Assembly (NCBI GenBank): GCA_017403125.1
Contig: JAFQOR010000010.1
Coordinates: 1 to 64,000 of the forward strand
Reading direction: 5' to 3'
Length of the DNA stretch: 64,000 nt
DNA from: Alistipes sp.
GTDB lineage: Bacteria; Bacteroidota; Bacteroidia; Bacteroidales; Rikenellaceae
A program made the translations under genes and the position numbers. Under the pieces are notes generated by a model. It searched no databases. It was given only the letters and a program-made list of their open reading frames with translations, and was not told where the DNA came from. This document shows, one piece after another, positions 49,083-57,905 of this stretch; the stretch's first letter is position 1, and each line of letters starts with the position of its first letter.

Positions 49083-50252
49083 TTACAGACACATCTCGTA
49101 GATTCGCTCAACATCCTCGGGCGTGAGCGTCTTGAAGCCGCGAATATCGCCATAGCGACACGCCTTGCGCGCCATCTCCTTGAAGTCTTCGCGCTTGATA
49201 CCCACCTCCGTAAAGGTGCTCTGCAAGCCCAGGGTCTTGAAGAAGAAGTCCGACAGACGTTGAATACTCTGCTTGGCGATAGTCATAGGCTCCTGATTTG
49301 CATCGATGCCAAAGACGTTTACGCCAAACGATACATATTTTTCGACATTTGTCTCGTCCAGACAGTACTCCATCCATCGCGGTGTAAGTATCGCCAAACC
49401 AAGACCATGCGTTATATCATACACGGCCGAGAGCTCGTGCTCCATAGGGTGGCAACTCCACGCCTTCTTCTTGCCGCCATTTATGAAGCCGTTGATAGCC
49501 CACGACGAGGTCCACATAAGGTTGGCACGCGCCTCGTAGTTCTCGGGCTCGGCAATAGCGATTGGAGCGTAGCGCACAACAGTTTTGAGCATGCCCTCCA
49601 TAAAGCAGTCGAGCATGTAGAGGTCCTTGTTCATATTGAAATATACCTCCATGATATGCGACATGATATCCGCCGCACCACACGCCGTTTGGTAGGCACT
49701 GACGCTATACGTGAGCGTAGGGTCGAGGAACGACACCTTGGGCAACAAGGGCTGTGCCAAGCGTCCCAACTTATCCTGCGTAGCTAAATTACTGATTACG
49801 CCACCCGAGTCCATCTCCGAGCCTGTTGCCGAGAGCGTGAGTATTGTCACCAATGGCAATGCGCGCTCGATGGGCTTGGCATTGGCACCGAAGAACTCCC
49901 ACGGGTCATGCTCGACACATGCACCCGCCGCCATAAACTTCGTGGCATCAATGGTAGAGCCGCCACCAACAGCGAGCAAAACGTCAATATTGTGCTCCTT
50001 GCACATCTTGACACCCTCTCTTACCGACTCAATGCGCGGATTTGGCTCGATGCCCGACAACTCGAACACCTCCATGCCTGCTTTATGTAACACCTCTATA
50101 ACATTATCATACAGACCTATACGCTTGATTGAGCCACCGCCATAGGTCAGCAATACCCTATTGCCATACTTTTTTAGCTCCTCGCCCAAATGCGACAACT
50201 GATTCTCGCCAAAATATACCTTGACAGGTATATCATATATAAAACTGTTCAT
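49083..50252 (-). CDS. Iron-containing alcohol dehydrogenase (BDH/YqhD-like)
   Basis: 389 residues, group III. The NAD(P)-binding motif is GGGSTIDATKF. The metal ligands lie in AADIMSHIMEVYF and in HPMEHELSAVYDITHGLGLA. It reduces aldehydes such as butyraldehyde or other short chains in the cytosol, a redox outlet for fermentation. The sequence is closest in pattern to butanol dehydrogenase BdhA. It lies 46 bases after the receptor-like gene on the same strand; whether it belongs to that operon functionally is doubtful. Confidence 0.92.
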   Translation of the reverse strand: MNSFIYDIPVKVYFGENQLSHLGEELKKYGNRVLLTYGGGSIKRIGLYDNVIEVLHKAGMEVFELSGIEPNPRIESVREGVKMCKEHNIDVLLAVGGGSTIDATKFMAAGACVEHDPWEFFGANAKPIERALPLVTILTLSATGSEMDSGGVISNLATQDKLGRLAQPLLPKVSFLDPTLTYSVSAYQTACGAADIMSHIMEVYFNMNKDLYMLDCFMEGMLKTVVRYAPIAIAEPENYEARANLMWTSSWAINGFINGGKKKAWSCHPMEHELSAVYDITHGLGLAILTPRWMEYCLDETNVEKYVSFGVNVFGIDANQEPMTIAKQSIQRLSDFFFKTLGLQSTFTEVGIKREDFKEMARKACRYGDIRGFKTLTPEDVERIYEMCL

Positions 50253-50298: not shown

Positions 50299-51723
50299 CT
50301 ACCACGACGACAACTCCGAGAAGTCGAGATAGCACTTATCGCCGCGTACCATAACCCTGTTGTCGCGAATCTTTGCATCCACATCTACATCAAGCCTACG
50401 GAGCAACTCCACCGTACCCTCCGGAACGACATACTCCATATCGCCGCCTCTGCTATCGAGTTTGGCGTGCTTGCTATACGCTATGAAGTAGAGAAACATA
50501 GGTTTCGAGCAGTATATCTCGCCGCCATCTGCCTCGCGTCGATAGACGCTCATAGGCATAGCGCCGACATTATCCATATAGTGACGACTTGCCAAAATGA
50601 TATACGGCTCGTCGGAGTGCGAAATCTTCATAAAGTGTGCACACTTTTCGGGCGATAGGTTCTCGCTACCGAGTATCTTCTCGTAGGCATTGCGCGTACC
50701 ACTCGAAATAGATGTAGAGAAGACCCTTATCGAGTCGTTATGCTCCATAAACTCGCGTAACTCATCGACCGAAATTCTCTGCTCTTCGAGATTTTCACGA
50801 CTGAAATGACGCCTTACGAGAGCATCATCCTTGGCATAGACAACCAATGTATCGAGTCCCAAAGGCACCGACACGATACAGTCGTCGCCACTGCGCAGAC
50901 CTATATCATACATATTCGCCGAGTCCGCCGAGATTGCCACCGTGAAATAACGTTTGTCATTGCCCTGTGCCTCCTCCACCAAGATAGGCCATGCCACACC
51001 GCTGGGCAGGGGTAGATAGTCGGCATTGGGCAGAGCCTTGACATCCACGCCATACTCGTGCGCTATATACCTCTCGGCAGAGCCACCTCCGATGATTAAC
51101 AGCTCTCGCTCGTGTCCTACACGTGCATCATTTGCGGGTCGCGACAGCAACAGATACAACATCATGCCACATGCTGCCAACAACACCAATAGCACCATAG
51201 TCACCCACCTCACGCGACGCAACGTGGCGACCAGCGCACCTCGCTTCGACGAGGCTTGCGCGGCGCATATATCGTAAATCGTACGACGCAACACGCCCTT
51301 GACTTTGAGCACCAGGTCAAAGTCATTGACATAGTTTATGTAGTACTCCTTGGTGAGCCCCTTAAATAGTCCATCGACATAGGCCTCCTCGGGGCTCTTG
51401 ACCTCACCACGACGAAAGAAGACATAGATGTAGGGGTATCCACGCTCTTGGCGACACTTCATGGCATGCACATACTCCTGCTCGGTCTTCTCGCCAATGC
51501 AACCATCGAGCACAAAGAGCACTATATCAGCATCGTTGGATATAAAGTCGTCGAAATCGTCTTGAAGAATGGTCGATAGATTGTCATAAGAGGAGATATT
51601 GACACATATATCTTGCTTCATGCGAGCATACTCGGTAGTCATATCATTTGCCAACGCCTTGATACTTTTGCGCTGCTCGTCAAGATTCTTTGCTCCGGCT
51701 ACAAATATCGATATCCTCTTCAT
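50299..51723 (-). CDS. TIR/DUF4062-like, membrane helix, phosphate-binding-protein-like receptor
   Basis: 474 residues. Residues 1-150 form an alpha/beta domain beginning RISIFVAGAKNLDEQRKSIK, with ADIVLFVLDGCIGEKTEQEY at about 65-84. This resembles DUF4062/TIR-like Rossmannoid domains, where such Glu residues can be catalytic. A single helix (173-194) preceded by RRVRW places the N terminus in the cytosol. Residues ~205-440 resemble a PstS-type periplasmic binding protein: LLIIGGGSA at the start and SSGTR at 340-344, like the phosphate-binding loop. No relative with this whole architecture is known to me. Its neighbours upstream are a small secreted helical protein, two RyR-domain proteins and a sigma factor. 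Confidence 0.6.
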   Translation of the reverse strand: MKRISIFVAGAKNLDEQRKSIKALANDMTTEYARMKQDICVNISSYDNLSTILQDDFDDFISNDADIVLFVLDGCIGEKTEQEYVHAMKCRQERGYPYIYVFFRRGEVKSPEEAYVDGLFKGLTKEYYINYVNDFDLVLKVKGVLRRTIYDICAAQASSKRGALVATLRRVRWVTMVLLVLLAACGMMLYLLLSRPANDARVGHERELLIIGGGSAERYIAHEYGVDVKALPNADYLPLPSGVAWPILVEEAQGNDKRYFTVAISADSANMYDIGLRSGDDCIVSVPLGLDTLVVYAKDDALVRRHFSRENLEEQRISVDELREFMEHNDSIRVFSTSISSGTRNAYEKILGSENLSPEKCAHFMKISHSDEPYIILASRHYMDNVGAMPMSVYRREADGGEIYCSKPMFLYFIAYSKHAKLDSRGGDMEYVVPEGTVELLRRLDVDVDAKIRDNRVMVRGDKCYLDFSELSSW

Positions 51724-51830
51724 CTTCGAAACAATTAGCCGTTAAACGGCACATAACACTTCATCTGCAAATATCGCAAAAATTATCTATATATGCAATA
51801 CCCACAGTACATATAGTGCTATTTGAGAGC

Positions 51831-52199
51831 CTATTGCCTCCTCGATGCCTTCTCGGTAGCCTCTGCTGCCCAATCCAAATACATCGCAGCCTTCTCTTGC
51901 GACTTGACAGCATATCCTACATAGAGCTCATACTTCTCCATCGCATCCTCCGCATATTTTGCATAGCTCTCTGCGCGGTCGATATTCCCATTTTTCGTAT
52001 AGTATGCCACATCGCGCTGATACTCCTCGGCACGTTTCAGATAGTATTCCGCCTCGCGCATATAGCTATCTGCCTGTGTCTTATGATACTCTGCCTCGCG
52101 ATAGTAGTCGCGCGCCTTGCGCATGTAGTAGTCGTCCTGCGCATGTGCCACCGACCCAAGCGCCATGACGGTGATAAATAGCAACAAAAATCTCTTCAT
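51831..52199 (-). CDS. Small exported helical protein
   Basis: 122 residues from ATG 52199, with signal MKRFLLLFITVMALGSVAHA. The mature protein is almost all helix: repeated R-E-A-E-Y-Y/H and K-A-x-x-Y blocks every 14 or so residues, rich in Tyr, Ala, Glu and Arg, suggesting a periplasmic coiled coil or TPR-like stack. No family is recognised. It lies 108 bases before the receptor gene and 45 after the RyR gene. Confidence 0.7.
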   Translation of the reverse strand: MKRFLLLFITVMALGSVAHAQDDYYMRKARDYYREAEYHKTQADSYMREAEYYLKRAEEYQRDVAYYTKNGNIDRAESYAKYAEDAMEKYELYVGYAVKSQEKAAMYLDWAAEATEKASRRQ

Positions 52200-52244
52200 A
52201 GTACACATCTATTTAGGTTGTACGAAAAATCACATACCCCTCGC

Positions 52245-52541
52245 CTACTCCTTGCTAATTTTGTAGCCGAGGCTACGTATGAGTCCCAACGTAGCCATGG
52301 CTGTTTTGCGGTCGTAGAGGCGCTCCTCCTCCGGGAGCTCGCTATATGGCACAAGACATGGATGCTGTTTCAGAGCATCGTTGCGTTCGGGACCATAGCT
52401 CCATCCCGCATCGAAACGTGCCTGTGCCCACTCGTCGTGCACCCTCTCGGCCATAACCTCCACCAAAGCCTTCAACTCCTCCGGCAGCTCGGCACCACCA
52501 TCGTCGAGGTGCATAGGTCTATACTCCATGCTCTGTTTCAT
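52245..52541 (-). CDS. Stand-alone RyR-domain protein
   Basis: 98 residues from ATG 52541 (a GTG at 52547 is also possible). Residues ~30-95 are a RyR domain: VHDEWAQARFDAGWSYGPER, then HPCLVPYSELPEEER and YDRKTAMATLGLIRSLGYKI. Bacterial RyR domains are known mostly from gene neighbourhoods of nucleotide-linked conflict or signalling systems and probably bind a ligand. It is a paralogue of the C-terminal domain of the protein encoded just upstream. Confidence 0.88.
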   Translation of the reverse strand: MKQSMEYRPMHLDDGGAELPEELKALVEVMAERVHDEWAQARFDAGWSYGPERNDALKQHPCLVPYSELPEEERLYDRKTAMATLGLIRSLGYKISKE

Positions 52542-52695
52542 ATCCACGAAAATCTAATCTTATACGGTTTTACCACGCCTACATATACAACGGTAAGAAT
52601 CCCAACTCTATTGTGCTGTTTACGGGTATCGTCACCCAAATTTCTTCATATCGTAGTTAGGGTTAGTTTGTTATAAGCGTTATATAAACTCTATT

Positions 52696-53697
52696 TTACC
52701 TCTTTGTTTTGACTATTTCGTATCCGAGTTTATACATCAACTTAATGGTCTGCATTGCCATCTCGCGATCATACTGCTTCTCGCTATCCTCAAGCTCGGC
52801 ATAGGGCACCAAGTCGGGTGTCTGCTTCAACGTATCGTTGCGCTCCGGTCCGTATGTCCACCCCTCGGCACGGCGGCTCTCCGCCCATATCTCGTGTGCA
52901 TTCTCGGCTATCGCCTCACGCAACTCGCAAATATCTGCCGAGAGCTCCACATCCGTAATATCTATCGGCTTGGGGTCATACTCCTTGTTATCGCGCGTGT
53001 TTGCCGCGACTATATAGTTCTCCGACACAGCCCACGCCTTTTGGAACTGCTGCAACGGATGCTTCACCGAATCGGCGATGTCGTTGGGGTCATAAAGCGT
53101 AACACTCTCCTCATCTATCGCAAGCACCACGACTACATGGTCGGGACGCTGACACTCCGTAGCCATAGCATCATATCCGGCAAGAAGATACTGATTGAGC
53201 GCAACAATAACATCGTCGCCCGCAGCCAAAGCTCGCTCGATATCGGCAACCGACGACTGATAGCGTCGTGTGACATAGAGTCCGTATCTCTCCAAATGAC
53301 GCCCTACGTTATGCAGCGCCGTACCTTCGCACTTCTGCCAATTGTTATCTACCGCAGCTTCGAGTATAGCCTCCTCGTCGAAGCCGATACCACGCCTACG
53401 CATAACATACTTTTCGCACTCCACACAACACAAATTGCTGTTGTCGCACTTTGCCGCCAGAGCGTCGATGGGCAATATTCTCACGCGACGCGACGTGGCC
53501 GACATAGCGCCAAGCATATTGAGATTAACCTCATCATCCACCTTGCGGGCAACCTGCATAATCTCACGCAGCTCCTCGTCGTGACCAAGAGCCTCGAAGA
53601 TGGCATCATACTCAGCCAATGTTGCCTCACCATCGAAATAGGCAGCCAGCACCTCGTCTGACACGCTAACCTTTTTACTACTCTTCTTCATCGTCAT
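52696..53697 (-). CDS. Anti-sigma-like / C39-like / RyR fusion protein
   Basis: 333 residues. Residues ~13-58 (SDEVLAAYFDGEATLAEYDA) resemble the N-terminal helices of anti-sigma factors. Residues ~75-235 resemble a C39/papain-like peptidase, with Cys90/91 in NLCCVECEKY, His187 in RPDHVVVVLAID and Asp203 in LYDPN. Residues 258-330 are a RyR domain (HEIWAESRRAEGWTYGPER). No membrane helix is seen, so it is cytosolic. The start overlaps the sigma gene by 20 bases, which fits a sigma/anti-sigma pair. Whether the peptidase site is active cannot be told. Confidence 0.75.
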   Translation of the reverse strand: MTMKKSSKKVSVSDEVLAAYFDGEATLAEYDAIFEALGHDEELREIMQVARKVDDEVNLNMLGAMSATSRRVRILPIDALAAKCDNSNLCCVECEKYVMRRRGIGFDEEAILEAAVDNNWQKCEGTALHNVGRHLERYGLYVTRRYQSSVADIERALAAGDDVIVALNQYLLAGYDAMATECQRPDHVVVVLAIDEESVTLYDPNDIADSVKHPLQQFQKAWAVSENYIVAANTRDNKEYDPKPIDITDVELSADICELREAIAENAHEIWAESRRAEGWTYGPERNDTLKQTPDLVPYAELEDSEKQYDREMAMQTIKLMYKLGYEIVKTKR

Positions 53698-54250
53698 CTA
53701 CTTTTTTAGCCTCTTTAAGTACTATGTCGGTAAGTTCCGTAATAGCACGTTTCTTAATATTATACAAATTACCAACCGTCACACCCAACTCTTTTGCGAC
53801 ATCCGCAGGGTCGGCATCCTGCAACACCAAACGCCTTAACGCATAGACCGACCTCTTGTTTGGCATAAGACTAAACGCCCGCTCTAAATCCATTGCAGCA
53901 TCGTTGCGACTCTCCTCGTCACAAATCTCGTCAGCTGTCGGTTTCCTATATTGAGGCTCGGAAGACCTATTTTCTATCATCCGACCACGTTTTGCTATAA
54001 AAAATCTGATCGCAACAATCTTCAACCACTGAAACAGAGAGCTTCTACCCTCATATTGTCGCAGACGTCGCGCATCATCCTCCAAGAGGTAGATATACAA
54101 TTCGCTCACAAACTCATCATAATCCACCTCGTAGGAGAATACATTGTTGATAATACTCTTGAAGAGCGGACGACAATCCTCAAAGAAGAATTTTTGCGTC
54201 ACCTCCCCATCACGAGCAATCAATCTCTCTACAATCTCTTTTGCTTCCAT
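53678..54250 (-). CDS. Sigma-70-family RNA polymerase sigma factor
   Basis: 190 residues. Region 2-like sequence is DYDEFVSELYIYLLEDDARR and SSLFQWLKIVAIRFFIAKRG. Region 4-like sequence is RAFSLMPNKRSVYALRRLVL, then ADPADVAKELGVTVGNLYNIKKRA. It is an ECF-type factor with a longer linker than usual. It is first in the operon with the anti-sigma-like/RyR protein. It could control its own operon; I do not see a clear -7 box TAnnTTTG upstream, consistent with an alternative promoter type. Positions 54251-54500 show no gene. Confidence 0.85.
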   Translation of the reverse strand: MEAKEIVERLIARDGEVTQKFFFEDCRPLFKSIINNVFSYEVDYDEFVSELYIYLLEDDARRLRQYEGRSSLFQWLKIVAIRFFIAKRGRMIENRSSEPQYRKPTADEICDEESRNDAAMDLERAFSLMPNKRSVYALRRLVLQDADPADVAKELGVTVGNLYNIKKRAITELTDIVLKEAKKVDDDEEE

Positions 54251-54500: not shown

Positions 54501-54531
54501 TTTGCTAATAAGAAAATAATACCTACATTTG
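54501..54531 (+). promoter_or_regulatory. Consensus promoter of tRNA-Leu
   Basis: TTTG (54501-54504), 19-bp spacer, TACATTTG (54524-54531). The start would be at about 54536, 20 bases before the mature tRNA. Confidence 0.8.
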
Positions 54532-54555
54532 CACACCAAATCAGAGAAATCTGAT

Positions 54556-54639
54556 GCCCAGATGGCGGAATCGGTAGACGCGCTGGTCTCAAACACCAGT
54601 AGGTTCACCCCTGTGCCGGTTCGACCCCGGCTCTGGGTA
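54556..54639 (+). tRNA. tRNA-Leu (anticodon CAA)
   Basis: 84 bases with the long variable arm of class II tRNAs. The acceptor stem GCCCAGA pairs with TCTGGGT, the anticodon stem CTGGT/ACCAG encloses loop CTCAAAC, and the T arm contains GGTTCGACCCC. The anticodon CAA reads TTG. CCA is not encoded. Confidence 0.95.
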
Positions 54640-54644
54640 CGAGG

Positions 54645-57396: not shown

Positions 57397-57849
57397 CTAT
57401 ACCATCCCCACATGCGGGAACTCCGACATAGGATGATACCTACCCTCGGAGAGTTGATAGCAGTAGGTTTGCAGACCGTTTGTAAGTACCACATATCGGC
57501 AACCAAGCACCGAGTTGTAGCGCACCGCCTGGCGCAATACCATGTCGTCAATCTTTATCGTCGGCTCCTTGCACTCGACAACAACCAACGGACGTGCATC
57601 ATCTCCCAGGGCAACAATATCGGCACGCTGCATCTGTCCATTCATATTCACGGGATACTCCTCGACAATCTGCTGGGGCATAAAACCGCAGCACCCTACC
57701 ATATACTCCACAACATGCCTACGCACCCACTCTTCGGGCGTAAGTACCAACCATCGACCACGAACTGCATCGAAAACCTCGGTGCGTCCGTTTGCCGCAT
57801 GGCGGGCTTTAAGCCTAATAGGCGGAAAATTTAGCTTTGGTAGCGACAT
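57397..57849 (-). CDS. HsdR N-terminal-like nuclease-fold protein
   Basis: 150 residues from ATG 57849. It matches the small 'type I restriction enzyme R protein N terminus' (HSDR_N) proteins: RGRWLVLTPEEWVRRHVVEY, then a PD-(D/E)xK-like core RADIVALGDD...VVVECKEP with Asp and Glu-x-Lys intact, then QAVRYN and YVVLTNG. There are no hsdM or hsdS genes nearby, and this stand-alone form is common in Bacteroidetes, so it is probably not a restriction enzyme. The role is unknown. Confidence 0.85.
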   Translation of the reverse strand: MSLPKLNFPPIRLKARHAANGRTEVFDAVRGRWLVLTPEEWVRRHVVEYMVGCCGFMPQQIVEEYPVNMNGQMQRADIVALGDDARPLVVVECKEPTIKIDDMVLRQAVRYNSVLGCRYVVLTNGLQTYCYQLSEGRYHPMSEFPHVGMV

Positions 57850-57876
57850 TTGGTGTTGTCTTGTATAATAAATGTG

Positions 57877-57896
57877 TATATTTGTGCACAAATATA
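57877..57896. promoter_or_regulatory. Perfect 20-bp palindrome with two divergent -7 boxes
   Basis: TATATTTGTGCACAAATATA. The left half is a -7 box for the plus-strand gene at 57906 and the right half is a -7 box for the minus-strand gene at 57849, only 4 bp apart. The two promoters must exclude each other, or one regulator binds the palindrome. Confidence 0.65.
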
Positions 57897-57905
57897 ACAC
57901 AAATA

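What the first reader, a model, noticed from the sequence alone, without database searches (positions are those of the whole stretch)
50299..54250. Candidate undescribed signalling or defence locus: sigma factor, anti-sigma/C39-like/RyR, RyR, helical secreted protein, TIR-like/PBP receptor
Seen: five minus-strand genes in one run, with a 20-base overlap between sigma factor and anti-sigma-like gene. Known: bacterial RyR domains and TIR/DUF4062-like domains recur in nucleotide-linked conflict and signalling systems. Inference: the receptor senses an extracellular ligand, possibly phosphate-like, its cytosolic domain makes or handles a nucleotide signal that RyR domains read, and the sigma factor sets expression. 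I know of no described system with this set.
Basis: partly seen in the sequence, partly recalled or inferred. Interest (0 to 1): 0.85.

Follow-up and report, generated by a model that had tools for sequence, protein, structure and literature searches.

The report
Membrane TIR-like receptor with RyR readers
A run of five bacterial genes encodes a membrane protein predicted to join an outside small-molecule sensor to an inside NAD-cutting domain, next to two proteins with the ryanodine-receptor (RyR) domain that would likely read the resulting signal and release a gene-switching sigma factor; relatives of the membrane protein lie, in several other genomes, beside an RyR-bearing protein that is predicted to be an ion channel.

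Summary
The five genes are real and at the stated coordinates. Both RyR calls pass Pfam's cut-off. The small RyR protein keeps all four residues that bind cyclic ADP-ribose in phage RyDEP; the fused one keeps three. The receptor matches no profile, but its predicted fold is TIR-like (aa 3-153), then one membrane helix, then a PstS-type binding domain (aa 205-454). The putative catalytic Glu (E83) and the SGT motif are in 23 of 23 aligned relatives. Gene 2 is a C39-like cysteine-peptidase/RyR fusion with a likely anti-sigma segment; 13 of 13 homologues read have this sigma factor nearby, 11 overlapping. The whole five-gene set was not seen elsewhere, but parts recur together: 9 of 16 receptor loci carry an RyR protein or a predicted RCK channel ending in RyR (0 of 9 control loci), and four shorter receptor-like proteins lie in same-strand runs with that channel. 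I infer a modular receptor-to-RyR signalling system based on an NAD-derived nucleotide, feeding a sigma factor here and an ion channel elsewhere. No chemistry is shown. Ten full-text searches found no description of the combination; two 2026 preprints supply the enzyme and reader halves separately.

The parts
53678..54250 (-). ECF-type sigma factor, 190 aa
   Evidence: TIGR02937 44.1 bits (cut-off 42.9); no Pfam hit; homologues beside C39 genes
52696..53697 (-). C39-like cysteine peptidase fused to RyR, 333 aa, overlapping the sigma gene by 20 nt
   Evidence: PF02026 110.8 bits; PF13529 22.2 bits (cut-off 24); C90 and H187 in 13 of 13 family members read
53473..53697 (-). N-terminal segment (about aa 1-75), likely anti-sigma domain
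   Evidence: inferred from position and overlap; weak zf-HC2 in two relatives (16.7 and 16.3 bits, cut-off 22.2); H-x3-C-x2-C in 1 of 13 (L068); the window copy has no zinc motif
52711..52980 (-). RyR domain of the fusion
   Evidence: H268, W271, D310 kept, the H100-equivalent is T293
52245..52547 (-). stand-alone small RyR protein, 100 aa
   Evidence: PF02026 99.1 bits; H37, W40, H62, D79 have the spacing of RyDEP H75, W78, H100, D117
51831..52208 (-). small helical, probably exported protein, 125 aa
   Evidence: hydrophobic N-terminus; one homologue among the loci compared (43% identity), lying between sigma and C39 genes in L080; no database search was made for it
50299..51723 (-). receptor, 474 aa: TIR-like domain, one membrane helix, PstS-like domain
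   Evidence: AlphaFold2 pLDDT 85.9, pTM 0.57; fold matches
51265..51717 (-). TIR-like domain (aa 3-153), putative catalytic E83
51145..51234 (-). predicted membrane helix (about aa 164-193)
   Evidence: hydropathy peak aa 164-182; helix 134-193 in the model
50362..51111 (-). PstS-type periplasmic binding domain (aa 205-454)

Best explanation
The locus likely encodes a transmembrane signalling pathway: a receptor with a predicted PstS-like sensor outside and a predicted TIR-like NAD-consuming domain inside would make an ADP-ribose-type nucleotide, which the two RyR-domain proteins beside it would bind. Inferred steps: (1) a small, perhaps anionic, extracellular ligand binds the outer domain; (2) the TIR-like domains are brought together and E83 attacks NAD+; (3) the product binds the RyR domain fused to the C39-like peptidase, which otherwise holds the overlapping-gene sigma factor through its N-terminal segment, and the sigma factor is released, perhaps by the peptidase cutting its own anti-sigma segment; (4) the stand-alone RyR protein buffers or destroys the signal and so resets the pathway. 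In relatives the same kind of receptor, or the same TIR-like domain on a shorter membrane protein, sits beside a predicted RCK ion channel ending in an RyR domain, so the signal there would open or close a channel. Shown directly: the genes, the RyR domains and their residues, the gene linkages. Predicted: the folds. Untested: every chemical step.
For: RyR over cut-off twice. All four RyDEP ligand residues are in the window's small RyR and in 21 of 24 distinct small RyR proteins compared; in 37 of 37 channel homologues of alignment A5 and 15 of 16 of A4. RyDEP (PMC13232231; abstract, first of six parts, sections 4 and 5 read) binds 2' and 3'cADPR and holds ADPR in this pocket. Receptor fold TIR plus PstS, E83 in 23 of 23. 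Receptor beside RyR or channel genes in 9 of 16 loci against 0 of 9 control loci (Fisher P 0.006; negatives unchanged when every ORF was searched). Four 361-377 aa proteins with the same N-terminal domain and a membrane helix lie in same-strand runs with the channel: L069, L141, L142, L143; two of them were scanned and both have a CarboxypepD_reg match just under cut-off. Sigma-C39 linkage 13 of 13, overlapping in 11. Catalytic-type Cys and His 13 of 13. The channel model resembles GsuK, DMI1, CASTOR and MthK.
Confidence: 0.42

Rival explanations
1. The receptor is a killer rather than a messenger: its TIR-like domain would deplete NAD+ on infection or envelope damage (abortive defence), and the RyR proteins would bind ADP-ribose products or protect the cell, with the sigma factor only setting dose.
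For: DUF4062 NADases of the Swarozyc system act through abortive infection (PMC13174449, abstract). Some relatives lie near TIR genes and a large WD40-repeat protein (L051, L086).
Against: RyR domains with a full ligand-residue set on a predicted channel, and RyR fused to a sigma-linked protein, fit a read-out better than mere quenching. None of the five proteins matches PADLOC.
Confidence: 0.2
2. No NAD chemistry: the inner domain is a binding scaffold of the TIR/deoxyribosyltransferase fold, and the RyR domains sense an ordinary adenine nucleotide such as ATP; the set is an envelope or phosphate-status regulator.
For: DNPH1 and RCL fold matches; human RyR3 binds adenine-containing ligands at this site (PMC13232231, section 4); PstS-like outer domain; replaced His in most C39-RyR proteins of A3.
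Against: E83 in 23 of 23; the window's T-E-x-E-[F/Y]-x-x-A stretch around it also occurs in three of the nine DUF4062 proteins read here (L149, L151, L158).
Confidence: 0.2
3. The genes are neighbours in a mixed island: a sigma-C39-RyR switch and an unrelated receptor that happen to adjoin.
For: The five-gene set was not seen elsewhere; none of the 12 sigma-C39 loci outside the window holds the receptor, though three of those genomes (G248, G250, G254) carry one on another contig.
Against: Receptor-RyR linkage far above expectation, and the helical gene recurs with sigma-C39 in L080.
Confidence: 0.18

Closest known systems
Thoeris (TIR enzyme making cyclic ADP-ribose that switches on an effector)
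   Same: TIR-like fold with an invariant Glu, and neighbours with a domain able, in phage relatives, to bind cADPR isomers
   Different: the enzyme-like domain is tied to a membrane helix and a predicted outside sensor; the proposed readers are RyR domains on a sigma-linked peptidase or a channel; no ThsA-like protein among the five
Swarozyc / DUF4062 TIR-like NADases (PMC13174449)
   Same: TIR-like fold; T-E-x-E-[F/Y]-x-x-A stretch; two relatives of the receptor's N-terminal domain score just under Pfam's DUF4062 cut-off of 24.7 (L085:61-2577 23.0 bits; G021 23.1 bits)
   Different: no DUF4062 hit for the window protein; membrane helix and PstS-like domain in place of the portal-binding auxiliary domain
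Phage RyDEP RyR proteins (PMC13232231)
   Same: RyR domain with H, W, H, D at the same spacing in the small RyR protein
   Different: here in a bacterial run with a sigma factor and receptor, not a phage evasion gene; fused to a C39-like peptidase in one case
RCK channels GsuK, MthK, CASTOR/DMI1, BK
   Same: the companion protein of relatives models as N-terminal hydrophobic helices plus RCK-type domains
   Different: ends in an RyR domain; not present in the window
ECF sigma / anti-sigma pairs
   Same: overlapping sigma-partner gene order
   Different: partner has no predicted membrane helix and carries peptidase and RyR domains; no zinc anti-sigma motif in the window copy

Membership tests
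RyR domain (PF02026) | profile match over the curated cut-off | tested here: met
   110.8 and 99.1 bits against 27.4
RyR domain (PF02026) | RyDEP-type ligand residues H, W, H, D | tested here: inconclusive
   small RyR 4 of 4; C39-fused RyR 3 of 4, T for the second H
TIR domain | sequence profile match | tested here: not met
   no Pfam family and no relevant NCBIfam model for the receptor
TIR domain | TIR fold | tested here: met
DUF4062 / Swarozyc | PF13271 match | tested here: not met
   0 families for the receptor; 0 hits in the window's genome; hhalign probability 13% without and 88% with two bridging rows
DUF4062 / Swarozyc | conserved Glu | tested here: inconclusive
   E83 in 23 of 23; equivalence to E97 of KpSwz inferred, not aligned
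Thoeris | cADPR-making TIR plus a cADPR-activated effector | not testable with these tools
   needs biochemistry; PADLOC finds nothing in the five proteins
PstS-type binding protein | fold | tested here: met
PstS-type binding protein | phosphate binding | not testable with these tools
   SGT motif in 23 of 23; its match to PstS S139-G140-T141 is recalled
C39 peptidase | profile match | tested here: not met
   22.2 bits, cut-off 24; relatives L078, L080, L081 pass PF13529
C39 peptidase | Cys-His-Asp triad | tested here: met
   C90 13 of 13, H187 13 of 13, D203 10 of 13 (two N, one F); that these are the triad is inferred from the motif, not from a structure
ECF sigma factor | TIGR02937 over cut-off | tested here: met
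   44.1 against 42.9
zinc anti-sigma factor | zf-HC2 / H-x3-C-x2-C | tested here: not met
   absent in the window copy; pattern in 1 of 13 relatives; weak zf-HC2 hits in two

The most novel reading that the evidence does not exclude
A bacterial receptor that senses a molecule outside the cell and signals inside with an NAD-derived nucleotide, read by RyR domains that drive either a sigma factor or an RCK ion channel: a prokaryotic counterpart of RyR-domain control of channels, with interchangeable receptors and outputs.
Probability: 0.33. Interest if true: 0.93.

Novelty: new variant of a known kind. Interest (0 to 1): 0.73.

Why it matters
As far as I know, RyR domains encoded by bacteria themselves have no established job; in 2026 phage versions were reported to bind, and in one case cut, TIR-made signals. 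This locus suggests that bacteria wire such domains to transcription and, in relatives, to channels. If true, it links TIR-type enzymes to outside sensing and to membrane excitability, and it bears on the old question of whether cADPR acts on animal ryanodine receptors through this domain. Each step has a simple purified-protein test.

Tried and rejected
Profile search of the receptor N-domain alignment against PDB sequences gave only chance matches (three sequences, best E 0.014 to a GTP-binding protein), so the TIR assignment rests on fold and Glu conservation. A first hhalign run against DUF4062 used wrongly oriented rows and was discarded; the corrected run is.

Island insertion: nine PanC-PanD regions, taken from 13 same-family genomes, held only PanC and PanD of the 14 window proteins tried, so nothing can be said on whether the run is inserted.

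Two small lipoprotein-like genes either side of the run looked like paralogues, but the comparison is not significant (E 0.078). The promoter pattern TTTG-N17-23-TANNTTTG has 9 exact matches in the window against 1.24 expected, none inside 50299-54250 on either strand.

Conflict-system surveys listed were not opened.

Rows left out before counts: the 23-row receptor alignment A2 omits P0007, L095 (cut short) and L097 (lacks the TIR-like N-terminus); A3 holds the window and 24 of the 120 listed (2012 found) C39-RyR homologues; A5 holds 31 of the 120 listed (1310 found) channel homologues plus six locus proteins.
Full report
What is there. Five minus-strand genes from 54250 down to 50299: sigma factor; C39-like/RyR fusion, overlapping it by 20 nt; small RyR protein; small helical protein with a hydrophobic N-terminus; receptor. 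Gaps between the others are 148, 36 and 107 nt, and an iron alcohol dehydrogenase follows 46 nt after the receptor.

Profile tests. RyR passes twice (110.8 and 99.1 bits, cut-off 27.4). These are the only PF02026 hits in the window's genome. The sigma factor passes TIGR02937 narrowly. C39 falls just short, while three relatives pass. The receptor and the helical protein match no Pfam family at all. PADLOC finds nothing in the five.

RyR residues. RyDEP contacts its ligand through H75, W78, H100 and D117 (PMC13232231, section 4). The window's small RyR has H37, W40, H62, D79, the same spacing. Of 24 distinct small RyR proteins compared, 21 have H-W-H-D (one search counts 22 of 25 with one gene held twice); the misses are L094 twice with T and L067 with N. 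The C39-RyR family has T at the third place in 23 of 25 rows of A3, but of seven C39-RyR proteins read in loci three have H, three N and one (the window) T. The fused domain may therefore bind another or weaker ligand.

C39 protein and sigma factor. In a 247-genome sample of the order, the C39 part is found in 10 genomes including the window's, and all 10 have the sigma homologue nearby; with three more from receptor genomes (L114, L118, L120) it is 13 of 13, 11 overlapping by 8-38 nt, L081 with a 22-nt gap and L080 with two genes between (starts as called by a simple script, so overlap lengths are approximate). One of those two genes in L080 is the only homologue of the helical gene found. 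C90 and H187 are in 13 of 13 and D203 in 10 of 13, so peptidase activity is plausible. The anti-sigma role of the N-terminal segment is inferred from gene order; a zinc motif occurs in one relative only. A homology search found 2012 relatives, the 120 listed covering 96-100% of the protein, so this switch is common, unlike the receptor.

Linkage of receptor and RyR. In the 16 loci (chosen by receptor sequence alone) nine hold an RyR or channel gene: L083, L084, L085, L086, L087, L090, L091, L094, L096; seven do not: L082, L088, L089, L092, L093, L095, L097, also when every ORF is searched; L092, L093 and L095 are cut short. L090 and L096 are close kin. Nine PanC loci from other genomes gave 0, as did three loci of weak receptor hits, L048, L049 and L050. 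A rough density estimate gives 0.03 expected places; the channel count in it was made by eye, and the channel profile was seeded with five proteins, two of them (L091, L094) from these loci and one (L047) the same gene as in L096, so the tiny Poisson P value there should not be taken at face value. PF02026 occurs in 11 of the 16 genomes (one below the cut-off) against 25 of 247 in the order sample, the window's genome included. Relatedness was not corrected for.

Short receptors. The receptor alignment hit 13 of 247 genomes: two full-length (window, G245) and eleven partial. Four of the partial ones (G069, G086, G107, G207) are 361-377 aa proteins with the same N-terminus and a membrane helix, in same-strand runs with the channel (L141, L142, L069, L143). 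Two of them (L142, L143) were scanned against Pfam and carry a CarboxypepD_reg match just under cut-off (29.1 and 31.9, cut-off 32.3), a different outer part. The other seven partial hits (G021, G032, G163, G170, G181, G209, G239) have no channel hit on the same contig.

Wider setting. In L051 the C39-RyR gene is followed, by eye, by an M48-type peptidase, then a TIR protein (68.0 bits) with a SIR2-like match under cut-off and a large NTPase-like protein that was not scanned. TIR proteins also accompany receptor or sigma-C39 in L068, L083, L086 and L094, and M48 peptidases in L094 and L143. This resembles conflict systems, but does not show defence.

Literature. PMC13232231 (abstract, first of six parts, sections 4 and 5 read) and PMC13174449 (abstract and passages from a term search; 'RyR' and 'membrane' do not occur in its main text) supply the two halves. 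Ten searches found no paper on the combination among the listings seen.

Verdict. The best reading is a modular receptor-to-RyR pathway; the messenger is the weakest link.

Noticed in passing
L096:6829-8973 (also L047, L090, L091, L094, L141-L143): Widespread family of predicted RCK channels ending in an RyR domain; 1310 homologues found for one member (120 listed). None found in the window's genome.
   Followed up: partly
window 49083-50252: Iron-containing alcohol dehydrogenase 46 nt downstream on the same strand; could share the transcript. Its linkage to receptor genes elsewhere was not tested.
   Followed up: no
window 54501-54640: tRNA-Leu (caa) with a Bacteroidota-type promoter pattern just before it, divergent from the sigma gene.
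   Followed up: no
L051:7491-15596: Sigma factor, C39-RyR, an M48-like peptidase (by eye), a TIR protein with a weak SIR2 match and a large NTPase-like protein (by eye) in one same-strand run: looks like a conflict system using the same switch.
   Followed up: partly
L141-L143, L069: TIR-like membrane proteins of 361-377 aa with a different outer part, in same-strand runs with the RyR channel; TPR-type genes lie between in L141.
   Followed up: partly
window 57397-57900: By eye this small protein resembles the N-terminal domain of type I restriction HsdR proteins; not searched.
   Followed up: no
L185 (IMGVR_UViG_3300037124_000040): A viral contig encodes an RyR domain 53% identical to the one in the C39-RyR protein, possibly a RyDEP-like protein.
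   Followed up: no
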